Assembly: GCF_000196015.1 (NCBI RefSeq)
Contig: NC_007973.1
Location: forward strand, 3,782,001 to 3,846,000
Length of the DNA: 64,000 nucleotides
Origin: Cupriavidus metallidurans CH34
GTDB taxonomy: Bacteria > Pseudomonadota > Gammaproteobacteria > Burkholderiales > Burkholderiaceae
Direction of reading: 5' to 3'
Each line of letters opens with the position of its first letter. Position 1 is the first letter of the stretch. A model generated the notes under the pieces. It saw nothing but the letters and a program-made list of their open reading frames with translations, searched no databases and was not told the DNA's origin. The translations under genes and the position numbers were made by a program. Below, in pieces: positions 4,405-55,930 of this stretch.

Positions 4405-5280
4405 TTAGACCGCAGCGGCACCGCTGACGATTTCCGACAGTTCCTTCGTAATCGCTGCCTGACGGGTCTTGTTGTAGACCAGTTGCAGTTCGCCGATCAC
4501 GTTCTTGGCGTTGTCGGATGCAGCCTTCATGGCCACCATACGCGCGGATTGCTCCGACGCCATGTTCTCGGCCACGGCCTGGTACACCAGCGCTTCGACG
4601 TAGCGGACGAGCAGCTCTTCCACAACGGTCTGGGCGTCGGGCTCGTAGATGTAATCCCACGAGTAGGCGCGCTTTTCATCTTCGGTCTGGCTCAGCTTGT
4701 CCGCTGCCAGCGGCAGCAGTTGCTCGACCATCGGCTCCTGCTTCATCGTGTTGATGAACTTGGTATATGCCAAGTACACCGCGTCGACTTCGCCGTTGGT
4801 ATAGGCGTCCAGCTGAACCTTGATCGCGCCGATCAGCTTTTCCAGATGCGGGGTGTCACCCAGCTGCACCACATGCGAGACCACCTTGGCGCCGATGCGG
4901 CCCAGGAACTGCATGCCCTTGGTACCGATGGCGGTCGCTTGCACGTTCACGCCCTGGCCCTGCAGGTCCTTCAGTTCGTTGGTCACCGCGCGCAGCACGT
5001 TGGTGTTCAGGCCACCGCACAGACCCTTGTCGGTCGTCACCACGATCATGCCGGCACGCTTGACGTCGCGTGCCACCATGAACGGATGCTTGAACTCGGG
5101 GTTGGCAGAGGCCAGGTGCGCCGCGATATTCCGCACTTTCTCGGCGTAGGGGCGGGCGTTGCGCATCCGTTCCTGCGCCTTGCGCATCTTGGATGCGGCG
5201 ACCATCTCCATCGCCTTGGTGATCTTGCGCGTGTTTTGCACGCTCTTGATCTTGGTTCGAATCTCTTTCGTTCCGGCCAT
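4405..5280 (-). CDS. atpG: ATP synthase gamma subunit
   Basis: 291 residues, the normal size. Gamma forms the rotating coiled-coil shaft inside alpha3beta3. The N-terminal helix begins [20 protein letters not shown], and the C-terminal helix contains [19 protein letters not shown], the conserved gamma signature. The GLCGGLN block is also typical. It sits between atpA (70 bp gap) and atpD. Confidence 0.98.
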
Positions 5281-5350
5281 ATCTTCCTCTCCACTCGTGC
5301 CGCGCCGCGCGCCTTACGGCGCGCCCGGCGCAACACATGGAATCACGCGG

Positions 5351-6892
5351 TTAGAACGCGGCGGACTTCCTGAAATCCTCGATCGCTGCACGCAGGGCGG
5401 CTTCGTCTTCCTTCGACAGATCCTTGGTATCTTCGATGCGGTTGACGAGGTCGGCGAACTTGGTCTTCAGGTGGTCGTGCAGGCCCTTCTCGAACGGCAG
5501 AATGTCCTTCACGTCGACGTTGTCGAGGAAGCCGTTGTTGGCGGCATACAGCGACGCGGCGAGTTGCCACACCTGCAGCGGCTGGTATTGCGGCTGCTTG
5601 AGCAGTTCGGTCACGCGGCGGCCGCGCTCGAGCTGCTTGCGGGTAGCGTCGTCCAGGTCCGAAGCAAACTGCGCGAACGCAGCCAGTTCACGGTACTGGG
5701 CCAGGTCGGTACGGATACCACCGGAGAGCTTCTTGATGACCTTGGTCTGCGCTGCACCACCCACACGCGACACCGAAATACCGGCGTTGATAGCGGGGCG
5801 GATACCGGCGTTGAACAGGTCGGTTTCCAGGAAGATCTGACCGTCGGTAATCGAGATCACGTTGGTCGGCACGAATGCGGACACGTCACCGGCCTGCGTT
5901 TCGATCACGGGCAGCGCGGTCAGCGAACCGGTCTTGCCGGTAACGGCGCCGTTCGTGAACTTGGCCACGTAGTCTTCGTTCACGCGGGCAGCGCGCTCGA
6001 GCAGACGCGAGTGCAGGTAGAACACGTCGCCAGGGTAGGCTTCGCGGCCCGGCGGGCGGCGCAGCAGCAGCGACACCTGACGGTAGGCCCAGGCCTGCTT
6101 GGTCAGATCGTCATAAACGATCAGCGCGTCTTCACCGCGGTCGCGGAAGTATTCGCCCATCGTGCAGCCGGCGTAGGCAGCCAGGTACTGCATGGCGGCC
6201 GAGTCCGAAGCCGTTGCGGCCACGACGATCGTGTACTCCATGGCGCCGTGCTCTTCCAGCTTGCGCACCACGTTGGAGATCGTCGAAGCCTTCTGGCCGA
6301 TTGCCACGTACACGCAGAAGACGCCCTTGCCCTTCTGGTTGATGATCGAGTCAACGGCCACGGCGGTCTTGCCCGTCTGGCGGTCGCCAATGATCAGCTC
6401 ACGCTGGCCACGGCCAATCGGCACCATCGCGTCGATCGACTTCAGACCGGTCTGCACCGGCTGGCTCACCGACTGACGCGCAATCACGCCCGGAGCGACC
6501 TTCTCGATCACGTCCGTTTCCTTGGCGTTGATCGGGCCCTTGCCGTCGATCGGCTGACCCAGCGTGTTCACCACGCGGCCCAGCAGTTCCTTGCCAACCG
6601 GCACTTCCAGAATGCGGCCGGTGCACTTGACCGTATCGCCTTCCGAAATGTGTTCGTACTCACCCAGAACCACGGCACCCACCGAGTCGCGCTCGAGGTT
6701 CAGTGCCAGGCCGTAGGTGTTACCCGGGAATTCCAGCATCTCGCCCTGCATCACGCCAGACAGGCCGTGCACGCGGCAGATACCATCGGTCACGGAAATT
6801 ACCGTGCCGGTGTTGCGCACTTCAGCGTCGGCGCCAAGACCCGAGATGCGGGACTTGATCAGCTCGCTGATTTCTGAGGGGTTCAGTTGCAT
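5351..6892 (-). CDS. atpA: ATP synthase alpha subunit
   Basis: 513 residues from the ATG at 6892. A GTG one codon upstream is also open, but AGGAG lies eight bases before the ATG, which fits better. Alpha carries the non-catalytic nucleotide sites; Walker A GDRQTGKT is at 169-176. The conserved QLNPSEIS N terminus docks to delta. The catalytic arginine-finger region [10 protein letters not shown] is present. It lies in the operon between atpH (39 bp) and atpG. Confidence 0.98.
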
Positions 6893-9250: not shown

Positions 9251-9484
9251 GTCGAAACGAACCGTATATTGCGAAATCTGACATCGGAAACCCGCCTTCG
9301 GCCGATTCCCGGTACACGTCTTGCTTAGCCTTCGGTCACATGACCGGTCACCGCTTGGAGCAAGTACGCCTTGTTATTCTTGGCAAACCTTAGTCACGCG
9401 ACACGGCACCGTTGTGACGCATCGCGTTTGAAACCTCTTGATTTCCCTGGGGGCTGCCTCATCTGCATCCAGTGCCCGCACCGC

Positions 9485-53086: not shown

Positions 53087-53599
53087 TTACTTCTTGTCCT
53101 TCGGCGCCAGCATCGTGCCACGGCACTTGGGGCTGCCGCAGCGGCACTCGTATTCCTGCTTGAGCTTCTTTGTGTAGCGCGCGTCGATCACCAGACCGTA
53201 GTCGTAGAACAGTTCCTCGCCCGGCTCGATATCGCGCAGTGCGTGGATGAACACGCGCCCCTTCTTCTCGCGCGCCTCGCAGTTCGGATCGCAGGCGTGA
53301 TTGATCCAGCGCGCGCGGTTTCCGCCGAACTTGGCGTCGATCACGTCGCCGTCGTCCAGACTGAAATAGAAAGTGTGATTCGGGTCGTTCGGATCGTGCG
53401 GATGGCGCTTGAGCGCTTCCTTCCAGGAGATGTGCTCGCCCTTGTACTCGATCACGCGCTCACCCTCGGCGATTTGGCCGATCGCGTAGACGCCCTTGCC
53501 ATGCACGCCCGACTGGCGCACCTCGATGCGATCACTGGCGGTCTTCTTCTTTCCCGCCTTCTTCTCTTTATCTTTGGTGTCCGTGCCCTTGTCCGACAT
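53087..53599 (-). CDS. SET-domain lysine methyltransferase
   Basis: 170 residues from the ATG at 53599. A Lys-rich tail (KDKEKKAGKKK) is followed by a SET domain: GVHGKGVYA near 31-39, RWINHACDPNCEA near 97-109 (the NHxCxPNC core), and GEELFYDYG near 127-135. A post-SET Cys cluster CxCx4C (Cys152, 154, 159) together with Cys107 could bind one zinc. This is the layout of eukaryotic histone methyltransferases. It is next to, and divergent from, the HU gene. The substrate is not known; HU or another basic protein is possible. Confidence 0.93.
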   Translation of the reverse strand: MSDKGTDTKDKEKKAGKKKTASDRIEVRQSGVHGKGVYAIGQIAEGERVIEYKGEHISWKEALKRHPHDPNDPNHTFYFSLDDGDVIDAKFGGNRARWINHACDPNCEAREKKGRVFIHALRDIEPGEELFYDYGLVIDARYTKKLKQEYECRCGSPKCRGTMLAPKDKK

Positions 53600-53672
53600 G
53601 TGCTGATTCCCGTGGCGATGGCGGCCGGCCCAGTCCGGCGCGAACCGGATGATACCCGTGCTGCCCACTCAG

Positions 53673-54225
53673 GTATACGCACGACGGACGTATACCTCAC
53701 CGCCGCCAATGTGGATAACCAAGGCTATTTCTGTGGATAAGCGCGCGCGTTTGGTGTGGGTTTACTGGGGCTGACATGGGGACGGCGCAGGAACAAGTCG
53801 ACACGTATACGCGCACTGCCTCATGCGAATGGCTGAGTCATCCACGCCGCCCAGCCGTTCATCCCTGTGGTTTTGGTATACGTAAACGCTTGATTCACTT
53901 GACGTATACGCGGTTATCCACAGAAACGGGCGCCGTTTACCTACTACTACTATCTGTATACATGAAAAGAAGATGTAAACCATACGCATGAGACGCGCCG
54001 TCGAGGCGTATACCTCTGGGCATCGCAACCCATCGACTCGAATCCGGAATTCAGAAGGCCGATCAAAAAACAGGCAGGGGTGCCCAGCAAGCGCCTGAGC
54101 CTCTACCCGCTCCGCTGCACCTCCCAGGCAACGTATACGCCCCAGGAGGCGCTCACAGGGCCGTATACGTCCCTGACAGCCTCCAGGAGGGGCCAGGAGC
54201 CTCTGTGGCCGTATTCGCCGTATAC
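53673..54225. repeat. Array of ten GTATAC palindromes
   Basis: GTATAC starts at 53673, 53690, 53805, 53876, 53904, 53956, 54008, 54133, 54163 and 54220, mostly within the longer word CGTATACG. In this GC-rich DNA one copy is expected about every 10 kb. The ten copies lie in 553 bp between the SET gene and hupB. They are not part of a direct tandem repeat; spacings vary, though two adjacent gaps are both 52 bp. It is likely a binding array for an unknown protein. Confidence 0.85.
53710..53952. other. Origin-like element: DnaA boxes, GC spacer and CTA repeats
   Basis: Perfect DnaA boxes lie at 53710-53718 and 53732-53740 (minus orientation) and 53914-53922 (plus). The last is followed by a GC-rich spacer and CTACTACTACTA at 53941-53952, then a more AT-rich stretch. 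This box / GC / trinucleotide order is that of the basal unwinding system with DnaA-trios described in bacterial origins. Whether it fires as an origin is not known; dnaA is not in the window. Confidence 0.6.
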
Positions 54226-54432
54226 GCACTCACAGGGCTTCCAGAACGTCTCCAATCCCCGCCATCCCTTTGCTGACGCGGCCGTGCAAACGTAACCGGT
54301 AACAATCTTGTTTCCGGTGCACTTTGCCCGACACGGTATGATGTGGCCCGCGGCGTCTTTGCCAGAGCGGCTTCCAGGGTGAAGTCTCCGGGCTGGACGC
54401 TGGTGTTTTTTCAACTCGATACGGAGTGAAGC

Positions 54433-54803: not shown

Positions 54804-54812
54804 TTATCCACA
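54804..54812 (+). promoter_or_regulatory. Perfect DnaA box between hupB and the lipoprotein gene
   Basis: TTATCCACA, in the 238 bp gap after hupB. It is the fourth perfect copy within 1.1 kb. Confidence 0.7.
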
Positions 54813-54949
54813 AAGGATTTCCTGCGACGCCGCGGGTAGAATCTCACAGTCGGCATCGCCACTTTCGTGATGGCCGATAATCCCTGAATAATGCCATCCA
54901 GCCTTGTCTGATCAAGGCATTGCGGGATGTCGCGACGCATGGACCCGAC

Positions 54950-55930
54950 ATGCTGCCCCGCTTGCTGCCGCGCAGATTTCCACAGCGTTATTCACAGCGC
55001 TTTCCACATAAGGCTCCACAGTCTTCTCCACAGGCGCTGGCGCAGAGACTGACGGCGGCAATTGCCCTTGCCGTGCTTTGCGGCTGTACCACGACGCCCC
55101 CGAGAACGGCTCGCCCGCAGGCCGTGCCGTTCCCCGACTATCAACAGGTGACCACGCCGCCTGGCGCTACGCCGCGCGAGCGCATTGTCGATATCGCCAT
55201 GCAGGAATGGCGCAAATGGGGGCAGCAGGTCGTGCATATCGGGCGCGACGATAGCGCCTGCGTCACACAGAGTCCGCTGCCCGCTCCGATGACTGCCGGA
55301 CCTGAAAAGGCATCGGACGGCGGTGACGTCAGCAGCCAGGCGTCTGCGGATACCGAAAATGACGAGAACGGCCGGGAAGCGGACTGCGTGCGCTTTCCCG
55401 ATGGCACCGGTATGGAAGCCACGCCCCGGGGCTGCCGGATGGCACAGGGGTACTGGGGCATCGTCGGTGAGGCGCCGGATTGCCGTCAGATCACCCAGGG
55501 CGCCTGGGCGTGGTCGGCCGTGTTCATTTCGTGGGTGATGCGCAAGGCGGGACTCGACAATGACCAGTTCCTGACCGGCCAGTCACATTCGATGTATGTG
55601 GTGGACGCACGCGATGGCATCCTGCCCCGCCCTGCCTTCCATATCGAGCCGATGCCGGCAGTACCGAGACCAGGCGACGTCGTTTGCGCCGCCCGCGGGC
55701 GCGACAAGTACATCTCCAACGTGGCCGAGATCGGTTTCGGCACCACGCCGATGCATTGCGACATCGTGGTCGAAGTGGATCCCGCCGCGCGCGTGGTCAA
55801 GGCGATTGGCGGCAACGTCCAGCAGTCGGTGTCGATGGACGTGATCGACATGAACGATGCTGGCCAGCTCGACGGCTTCACGAACTCGCACATGCCGTGG
55901 CTGCTCCTGATGCGCAACAACCTGCAGTAG
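54950..55930 (+). CDS. DUF2272-like lipoprotein
   Basis: 326 residues from the ATG at 54950 (54920 is an alternative). The N-terminal region is long and basic, made by five four-residue repeats (such as RFPQ, RYSQ). A hydrophobic segment then ends in the lipobox LCGC, so it should be lipidated and attached to an envelope membrane. The C-terminal domain (WAWSAVFISWVMRKAGL, SHSMYVVDA, PGDVVCAARG, HCDIVVEV) has the order Cys/Ser-His of an NlpC/P60- or CHAP-like hydrolase, as expected for DUF2272. A disordered Asp/Glu-rich linker lies between. The function is not known. Confidence 0.8.
   Translation: MLPRLLPRRFPQRYSQRFPHKAPQSSPQALAQRLTAAIALAVLCGCTTTPPRTARPQAVPFPDYQQVTTPPGATPRERIVDIAMQEWRKWGQQVVHIGRDDSACVTQSPLPAPMTAGPEKASDGGDVSSQASADTENDENGREADCVRFPDGTGMEATPRGCRMAQGYWGIVGEAPDCRQITQGAWAWSAVFISWVMRKAGLDNDQFLTGQSHSMYVVDARDGILPRPAFHIEPMPAVPRPGDVVCAARGRDKYISNVAEIGFGTTPMHCDIVVEVDPAARVVKAIGGNVQQSVSMDVIDMNDAGQLDGFTNSHMPWLLLMRNNLQ
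54976..55035 (+). repeat. Five tandem 12-bp DnaA-box-like repeats
   Basis: Units start at 54976, 54988, 55000, 55012 and 55024, each carrying TTTCCACA, TTATTCACA or CTCCACA at the same position, with exact 12 bp spacing. They lie inside the first codons of the lipoprotein gene and code for four-residue repeats. The central unit TTATTCACA fits the relaxed DnaA consensus; the others differ by one to three bases. Confidence 0.8.

What the first reader, a model, noticed from the sequence alone, without database searches (positions are those of the whole stretch)
53710..53990. Origin-like unwinding element (DnaA boxes + GC spacer + CTA trinucleotides) far from dnaA
Seen: three perfect DnaA boxes (53710-53718, 53732-53740, 53914-53922). 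The last is followed by a GC-rich spacer and four CTA units (53941-53952), then AT-richer DNA. Known: in bacterial origins the DnaA-trio (3'-[G/A]A[T/A]-5', here the complement of CTA) next to a DnaA box lets DnaA open the DNA. Inferred: this could be oriC itself or a second DnaA-driven melting site. A HU gene directly beside it and a parS cluster 39 kb away fit an origin region.
Basis: partly seen in the sequence, partly recalled or inferred. Interest (0 to 1): 0.82.

Follow-up and report, generated by a model that had tools for sequence, protein, structure and literature searches.

The report
Chromosome origin crowded with methylation sites
The spot is very probably where this metal-tolerant soil bacterium starts copying its main chromosome, as a genome paper had already suggested; it is also packed with target sites of one DNA-marking enzyme, and a weakened second copy of the start site lies roughly 150,000 bases away in most of the related genomes examined.

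Summary
The element (E1) lies between a SET-domain gene and a HU gene, 92 kb from dnaA, in what is by coordinates Cupriavidus metallidurans CH34 chromosome 1. The GC-skew change point (3,840 kb; support 3,833-3,853 kb) includes E1 and rejects dnaA. The 2010 genome paper already reported this skew switch and the three boxes in 213 nt, so "origin away from dnaA" is not new.

New here: (1) the box/IHF-like/box/spacer/DnaA-trio geometry is conserved in 36 aligned loci. (2) 14 GTWWAC sites, the m6A motif of an orphan methyltransferase in related species, lie in 553 bp (about 340-fold enriched); clusters recur in 25 of 25 Cupriavidus-type E1 loci and 27 of 27 measured chromosome-2 origins. (3) A second, attenuated box/trio/GTWWAC module (E2) occurs in 38 of 40 Cupriavidus genomes.

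Best reading: E1 is oriC1, opened by DnaA at the trio; GTWWAC methylation probably tunes initiation in a Dam/SeqA-like way. Methylation in CH34, a reader protein and E2's role are untested. In a Ralstonia-like genome the skew does not point at E1, and FtsK-site polarity slightly favours dnaA.

The parts
53600..54432 (.). E1: proposed oriC1, the intergenic region between the divergent SET and HU genes
   Evidence: Skew change point, model R1 219 bits at 53702-53999, conservation
53710..53718 (-). DnaA box 1, TTATCCACA
53732..53740 (-). DnaA box 2, TTATCCACA, 22 bp from box 1
53883..53895 (-). IHF-like site, exact match to the (recalled) consensus WATCAANNNNTTR; overlaps GTAAAC 53882-53887; the only exact match in the window
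53914..53922 (+). DnaA box 3, TTATCCACA, 182 bp from box 2
53923..53940 (+). 18-bp spacer between box 3 and the trios (GC-rich, then GTTTAC)
53941..53952 (+). Four DnaA-trios, CTACTACTACTA (3'-GAT-5' repeats on the bottom strand)
   Evidence: consensus 3'-GAT-5'
53941..53990 (.). AT-rich stretch (66% AT), proposed opening site
53956..53961 (.). GTATAC directly after the trios, invariant in all 36 aligned loci
53673..54225 (.). Cluster of 14 GTWWAC sites: 53673, 53690, 53760, 53805, 53876, 53882, 53904, 53935, 53956, 53975, 54008, 54133, 54163, 54220
53087..53599 (-). SET-domain protein gene
   Evidence: PF00856
54433..54711 (+). HU family gene
   Evidence: PF00216
13418..15083 (.). Four parS-like sites, about 39-40 kb from E1

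Best explanation
E1 (53600-54432) is the DnaA-dependent origin of chromosome 1. DnaA binds boxes 1-3, with the DNA between them bent by IHF or HU; from box 3 DnaA extends over the 18-bp spacer onto the 3'-GAT-5' trios of the bottom strand and opens the AT-rich DNA at 53941-53990. The 14 GTWWAC sites are substrates of an orphan adenine methyltransferase encoded between trpB and trpA; they become hemimethylated when the fork passes, and this most likely changes melting, or the binding of DnaA, IHF or a still unknown reader, so as to limit re-initiation, in the manner of Dam/GATC/SeqA. Shown: the sequence anatomy, its conservation, the skew change point, the site enrichment, the gene's synteny. 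Inferred: replication start, DnaA and IHF binding, opening, methylation in CH34, and every regulatory step. My split: origin identity about 0.9; sites methylated about 0.85; methylation controls initiation about 0.5. The confidence below is for origin identity plus the opening mechanism.
For: Skew change point includes E1 and rejects dnaA. Only two box-spacer-trio modules in 688 kb around it, and none in 18 other stretches, 355 kb. Geometry held in the 36 aligned loci, with GTATAC after the trio invariant. E1 found in 40 of 40 Cupriavidus genomes. GTWWAC: 14 in 553 bp against 60 in the other 802.5 kb sampled; 372 in 25 Cupriavidus-type loci, same-composition controls 3-30 each over all 35 loci. 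GTWWAC is methylated in C. necator H16, in R. solanacearum by RSc1982 and in B. cenocepacia, where origins are called methylation-rich. Methyltransferase between trpB and trpA in 10 of 10 loci. Chromosome-2 origins also clustered, 27 of 27 measured. Skew switch and boxes noted independently.
Against: KOPS polarity slightly prefers dnaA. In the Ralstonia-like genome G356 the skew change point lies 96 kb from E1 and KOPS favours dnaA. Ralstonia-type E1 loci have only 2-3 GTWWAC, so the cluster is not needed for origin function. The 18-bp spacer exceeds the 16-bp limit of the published BUS search. B. cenocepacia methyltransferase mutants showed no exponential-growth difference.
Confidence: 0.82

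Rival explanations
1. Replication starts at dnaA, and E1 is a DnaA-binding regulatory or titration site; the skew switch at E1 reflects an old rearrangement.
For: dnaA has boxes beside it (3927734 cluster); KOPS fits dnaA slightly better; the C. necator NH9 paper places boxes around a dnaA-linked origin (passages).
Against: Skew rejects dnaA strongly in CH34 (penalty 99.8); no box-spacer-trio module at dnaA in the scanned 688 kb; E1 conserved in 40 of 40 Cupriavidus genomes.
Confidence: 0.08
2. The GTWWAC cluster serves promoter control of the SET and HU genes, as proposed for the homologous Ralstonia region, and has no role in replication.
For: The Ralstonia methylome paper reports three conserved sites overlapping predicted -35 elements of both genes (passages).
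Against: In CH34 the sites spread over 553 bp around boxes and trio; the same clustering occurs at chromosome-2 origins and at E2, which is not between SET and HU; one site is fixed beside the trio in 36 of 36.
Confidence: 0.15
3. Not exclusive with the main reading: chromosome 1 has a multi-module system in which E2 is a conditional second origin, or a replication timer for DnaA or chromosome 2.
For: E2 in 38 of 40 Cupriavidus genomes; on one contig in 23, always inverted and on the same side, 134-220 kb away. In 23 E2s examined of 38: trio kept in 23, box 3 off by its last base in 23, GTWWAC within 1-5 bp after the trio in 23, 189 GTWWAC in 11.3 kb against 19 in 140.6 kb around.
Against: No skew minimum at E2 (penalty 105.6), so it is not a regular origin. 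Skew just right of E2 is flat (-0.008 over 60 kb), but other stretches vary as much. Two of 40 genomes lack it.
Confidence: 0.3
4. E2 is a decaying relict of a duplicated origin with no function.
For: Boxes are degenerate compared with E1; scores are less than half of E1's.
Against: Box 3, trio and following GTWWAC are conserved while the spacer between them varies; the GTWWAC density is kept.
Confidence: 0.2

Closest known systems
Predicted CHR1 origin of C. metallidurans CH34 (PMC2864759; passages seen)
   Same: Same place: skew transition near 3,837,500 and three perfect boxes in 213 nt
   Different: Passages mention no DnaA-trio, no GTWWAC cluster, no comparison across species and no E2
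Basal unwinding system (BUS) of bacterial origins (PMC6669920, PMC8287927; passages seen)
   Same: DnaA box, spacer, repeated 3'-GAT-5' trios, AT-rich DNA beyond
   Different: Spacer 18 bp with the second tandem box degenerate in Cupriavidus; unwinding not tested
SET-HU intergenic region of R. solanacearum (PMC5390034; passages seen)
   Same: Homologous region, GTWWAC-rich, methylated there
   Different: Read there as promoter control, not as an origin; 2-3 sites in my Ralstonia-type loci against 10-19 in Cupriavidus-type ones
Methylated origins of B. cenocepacia (PMC7364216; passages seen)
   Same: GTWWAC methylation near all origins, replication role suggested
   Different: Two methyltransferases (CACAG, GTWWAC); CACAG dominates; dense GTWWAC cluster and second module not described in the passages
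E. coli Dam/GATC/SeqA control of oriC (described in passages; details otherwise recalled)
   Same: Orphan adenine methyltransferase sites crowded in the origin and beside the melting region
   Different: Different enzyme class and motif; no reader protein known or searched for
DARS/datA elements of E. coli (recalled; listing only)
   Same: DnaA-box clusters on the chromosome away from oriC, compare E2
   Different: E2 keeps a trio and GTWWAC sites; as far as I recall DARS/datA have no trios
Putative double origins, R. pickettii 12D (PMC4403523; passages seen)
   Same: More than one origin-like region on chromosome 1
   Different: Those are beside dnaA and hemE; boxes near hemE in G356 have no trio

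Membership tests
Bacterial chromosomal origin (oriC) | Cluster of DnaA boxes | tested here: met
   Three perfect boxes in 213 bp
Bacterial chromosomal origin (oriC) | At the GC-skew switch | tested here: met
   CH34: inside the support interval. Not met in the Ralstonia-like G356
Bacterial chromosomal origin (oriC) | FtsK-site (KOPS) polarity switch at the origin | tested here: inconclusive
   65 sites; best split 3895-3928 kb, E1 deficit 4.1, dnaA deficit 2.0
Bacterial chromosomal origin (oriC) | Replication starts there; DnaA binds and opens it | not testable with these tools
   Needs marker frequency, ChIP, footprinting
Basal unwinding system (BUS) | DnaA box, then at least three trios reading away from it | tested here: met
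   Four trios, 3'-GAT-5'
Basal unwinding system (BUS) | Spacer of 0-16 bp, or longer when a second box lies in it | tested here: inconclusive
   18 bp; a degenerate second box is visible in Ralstonia-type loci, not in CH34; limits
Dam/SeqA-like origin control | Orphan methyltransferase sites crowded in the origin | tested here: met
Dam/SeqA-like origin control | Sites crowded in the dnaA promoter too | tested here: inconclusive
   0-2 sites within 400 bp upstream; at least one in 19 of 26 measured; 29 in 10.4 kb, but control ACWWGT gives 26
Dam/SeqA-like origin control | Sites methylated in this strain | not testable with these tools
   Methylated in C. necator H16; no CH34 data seen
Dam/SeqA-like origin control | A protein that holds hemimethylated origin DNA | not tested
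   No search for SeqA or another reader was made
DARS/datA-like element (for E2) | DnaA-box cluster that changes the DnaA nucleotide state without initiating | not testable with these tools
   E2 anatomy only

The most novel reading that the evidence does not exclude
Cupriavidus runs an epigenetic origin-control system of its own kind: one orphan methyltransferase marks dense GTWWAC clusters at both chromosome origins, and chromosome 1 carries a second, weakened DnaA-box/trio/GTWWAC module (E2), kept inverted 134-220 kb from oriC across the genus, acting as a conditional second origin or replication timer. Related modules in two to four copies per genome in many Burkholderiaceae would make a multi-module DnaA origin system a family trait.
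Probability: 0.3. Interest if true: 0.88.

Novelty: new variant of a known kind. Interest (0 to 1): 0.62.

Why it matters
How bacteria with two chromosomes start each one once per cycle is known in detail for few species. Here one methylation motif crowds both chromosome origins of a genetically tractable, industrially used genus, in a design parallel to Dam/SeqA but with a different enzyme. A conserved second DnaA-trio module on the same chromosome is unexpected, since bacteria are taken to have typically a single oriC (abstract), and its role can be tested by deletion. The result also gives a precise origin coordinate where the C. necator NH9 paper describes a dnaA-linked origin, and re-reads a hypermethylated Ralstonia locus that had been explained as promoter control.

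Tried and rejected
(a) Chance: rejected for boxes, trio and GTWWAC. GTWWAC over the whole 64-kb window is only mildly above shuffles (19 against mean 12; 4 of 100 shuffles reach it); it is the clustering that is extreme. (b) dnaA and hemE as origin in CH34: rejected by skew. In the Ralstonia-like G356 three boxes lie near hemE (3126361; hemE at 3126786-3127853) but no trio. (c) E2 as a regular origin: rejected by skew. (d) FtsK-site polarity: did not support E1. (e) Whether the Ralstonia-like E2 is the same locus: no tag hit in the stretches fetched, so they may not be positional orthologues. (f) dnaA promoter as a second methylation-rich site: weak, because a control motif is equally common there. 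(g) 'Not in print' for a GTWWAC cluster at a Cupriavidus origin and for E2 rests, over open PMC papers only; most subscription papers and all supplements were not searched. (h) Rows outside counts: 45 of 80 SET loci without a divergent HU within 3 kb. One of them, L070, does hold a GTWWAC cluster with two boxes (8 sites in 491-909, boxes near 776 and 980) about 4 kb from SET; its contig size matches the one that carries E1 in G307. In one search, 4 of 30 dnaA loci and 1 of 28 repA loci lacked usable upstream sequence; one search was a first version that read only plus-strand loci. 15 of 38 E2s were not examined in detail. Four of 36 E1 sequences were not scored for the IHF-like site. (i) One search was a useless alignment (wrong second sequence).

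Full report
WHERE IT IS. The window is C3:3782001-3846000 of a 6,913,352-base, four-contig genome; C3 is 3,928,089 bases with dnaA at 104. The coordinates that the CH34 genome paper gives for CHR1 in the passages seen fit: dnaA at 104, skew transition near 3,837,500, three perfect boxes in 213 nt, four weak boxes at 3,707,588-3,707,653 (my scan finds the last group at 3,707,589). So this is Cupriavidus metallidurans CH34 chromosome 1, and the finding sits at 3,835,710-3,835,990. (For CHR2 the paper's map places repA at 2.43 Mb, whereas here it is at the start of C4; that record is rotated.)

OBSERVATION. What it missed is the GTWWAC cluster: 14 of the 19 sites of the 64-kb window lie in 53673-54225. 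In an 803-kb sample of chromosome 1 there are 74 sites: 25 per kb inside the cluster, 0.075 per kb outside, and no other 600-bp window of that sample has more than 3.

IS IT THE ORIGIN? Over a contiguous 688 kb the GC-skew change point is 3,840,001 with support 3,833,001-3,853,001; E1 is inside (penalty 4.2), while dnaA, hemE and E2 are rejected (99.8, 114.9, 105.6). Stretches sampled elsewhere show positive skew from 0 to 1.4 Mb, mixed values at 1.6-1.8 Mb, and negative skew from 2.0 Mb to E1 with one exception near zero at 3.70 Mb. A scan for a DnaA box (at most 1 mismatch), 4-22 bp and at least three trios finds two modules in the 688 kb, E1 and E2, and none in 18 further stretches (355 kb) of chromosome 1. 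The genome paper had already proposed this place from skew and boxes, so that part is known. Against it, KOPS polarity fits a switch nearer dnaA slightly better.

ANATOMY AND CONSERVATION. Of 80 SET-protein loci kept by the search, 35 have HU divergent within 3 kb. With CH34 these 36 show box 1, 22 bp, box 2, 181-182 bp, box 3, spacer, trios, GTATAC; L076 lacks box 1. In the alignment the six bases of GTATAC after the trio are invariant in all 36; within the trio the last repeat CTA is invariant and the third is CTA with its T changed in a few. Some boxes carry one mismatch. An IHF-like site starts 31 bp before box 3 in all 32 loci scored, with 0-3 mismatches, exact in 7. Ralstonia-type loci hold a second degenerate box in the spacer, the tandem-box layout of the published unwinding system. 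A sequence-only model of the 305-bp core finds E1 in 40 of 40 Cupriavidus genomes, and something above threshold in 76 of 300 Burkholderiales genomes drawn evenly, searched with strict filters, many of them weak.

THE METHYLATION SITES. The 25 Cupriavidus-type intergenic regions carry 10-19 GTWWAC each (372 in all); the ten others, nine of Ralstonia type and L076, carry 2-3 (24 in all). Seven control motifs of the same composition give 3-30 each over all 35; the rest of those loci has 28 GTWWAC in 324,536 bp. GTWWAC is methylated in C. necator H16, in R. solanacearum by RSc1982 and in B. cenocepacia by BCAM0992, where origins are described as methylation-rich. The CH34 homologue (PF01555) lies between trpB and trpA, as do its relatives in 10 of 10 loci, the own one included. 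That it is the counterpart of the enzymes named in the papers is inference from homology and family-wide conservation; the 120 rows listed of 2256 protein hits bear only generic or RsrI-type methyltransferase names. The chromosome-2 origin upstream of repA (PF04796) is also marked: 11 sites in CH34 among the iterons, 5-13 sites in 27 of 27 measured loci, with a fixed four-site block in 24; 242 in 32.1 kb against 15 in 70.0 kb of gene and downstream DNA. Replicon C1 (233,720 bases) has 6 sites at 4888-5245 beside its Rep3 gene.

THE SECOND MODULE. The model hits C3:3683258-3683548 on the minus strand at 94 bits, against 219 for E1. Box 3 is TTATCCACG, the spacer is again 18 bp, the trio reads CTATTACTACTA, and nine GTWWAC lie in 235 bp. 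It stands between a methyladenine-glycosylase gene (tag-like, PF03352) and a LysE-type gene (PF01810); the tag homologue is in 23 of 23 E2 loci, the LysE homologue in 7. 38 of 40 Cupriavidus genomes have E2; where both modules are on one contig (23 genomes; in G328 only if the contig is closed to a circle) it is always inverted, on the same side, 134-220 kb away; G303 and G315 lack it. In the 23 examined, box 3 differs from the perfect box only in its last base (G in 21, T in 2), the trio is kept, a GTWWAC follows within 1-5 bp, and GTWWAC is 189 in 11,256 bp against 19 in 140,570 bp around, with controls at 1-10; a perfect box stands at the box-1 position in five (L226, L227, L228, L239, L240). 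Column conservation is high at box and trio and low in the spacer, which suggests selection on the module. A Ralstonia-like genome, G356, has three modules (E1, one at +23 kb, one inverted at -141 kb), and a second genome of that genus also has three matches. In 11 of the 41 family genomes a convergent pair stands about 3 kb apart (2.9-3.6 kb; counted).

HOW IT PROBABLY WORKS. DnaA assembles on boxes 1-3 and reaches onto the trios, as in the basal unwinding system. Fork passage leaves GTWWAC hemimethylated; with one site fixed beside the trio and one overlapping the IHF-like site in CH34, methylation state could set ease of melting or protein binding and so limit a second start. This step has no direct evidence here; B. 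cenocepacia mutants showed larger nucleoids but no exponential-growth difference, which argues for modulation, not an essential switch. E2, with a weaker box 3 and an intact trio, would be filled only at high DnaA; I think a timing or backup role more likely than none, but that is inference.

RESULTS AGAINST. In G356 the skew change point (3,276 kb; support 3,266-3,300 kb) is 96 kb right of E1 and 140 kb left of dnaA and matches no module (penalties E1 17.7, the +23-kb module 14.3, dnaA 14.9); KOPS there favours dnaA. So E1 as the origin is not shown for that genus. The DoriC listing for R. pickettii 12D gives hemE- and dnaA-adjacent origins. Ralstonia-type loci do well with 2-3 GTWWAC, and the module 141 kb left in G356 has none beside its trio.

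VERDICT. The new content is the conserved module geometry, the GTWWAC clusters at both chromosome origins, and E2. Papers were seen as passages, PMC8729776 also as abstract; none was read whole.

Noticed in passing
Outside the window: C3:3683258-3683548 (-), in L174:5258-5548: E2, a second attenuated box/trio/GTWWAC module, inverted, 152 kb from oriC; found in 38 of 40 Cupriavidus genomes.
   Followed up: partly
L134:20-905 (start of C4, chromosome 2): 11 GTWWAC sites among the RepA iterons upstream of repA; a fixed four-site block occurs in 24 of 27 measured relatives.
   Followed up: partly
L139:4888-5245 (C1, 233,720 bases): Six GTWWAC sites beside the Rep3-type initiator gene of the plasmid-sized replicon.
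   Followed up: no
54804-55032: A further group of three DnaA boxes (0, 1 and 1 mismatches) just beyond the HU gene, all on the + strand and without trios.
   Followed up: no
9285-9364 (-): Rfam Cupriavidus-1 RNA, 77.8 bits.
   Followed up: no
C3:3560900-3561190 (L217): The only other GTWWAC cluster of four or more sites per 600 bp in the 688 kb; gene context not examined.
   Followed up: no
C3:3707589-3707653: Four DnaA boxes with one mismatch each, all on the minus strand, as the genome paper says; no trio found there.
   Followed up: no
L186:1741-1871 (+) and 5227-5496 (-), Paraburkholderia tropica: Convergent pair of origin-like modules about 3.5 kb apart; similar pairs in 11 of 41 family genomes. 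The B. cenocepacia paper calls the exact origin there unclear (passages).
   Followed up: partly
G356 C1:3276 kb: In a Ralstonia-like genome the GC-skew change point matches neither E1 nor dnaA; unexplained.
   Followed up: partly
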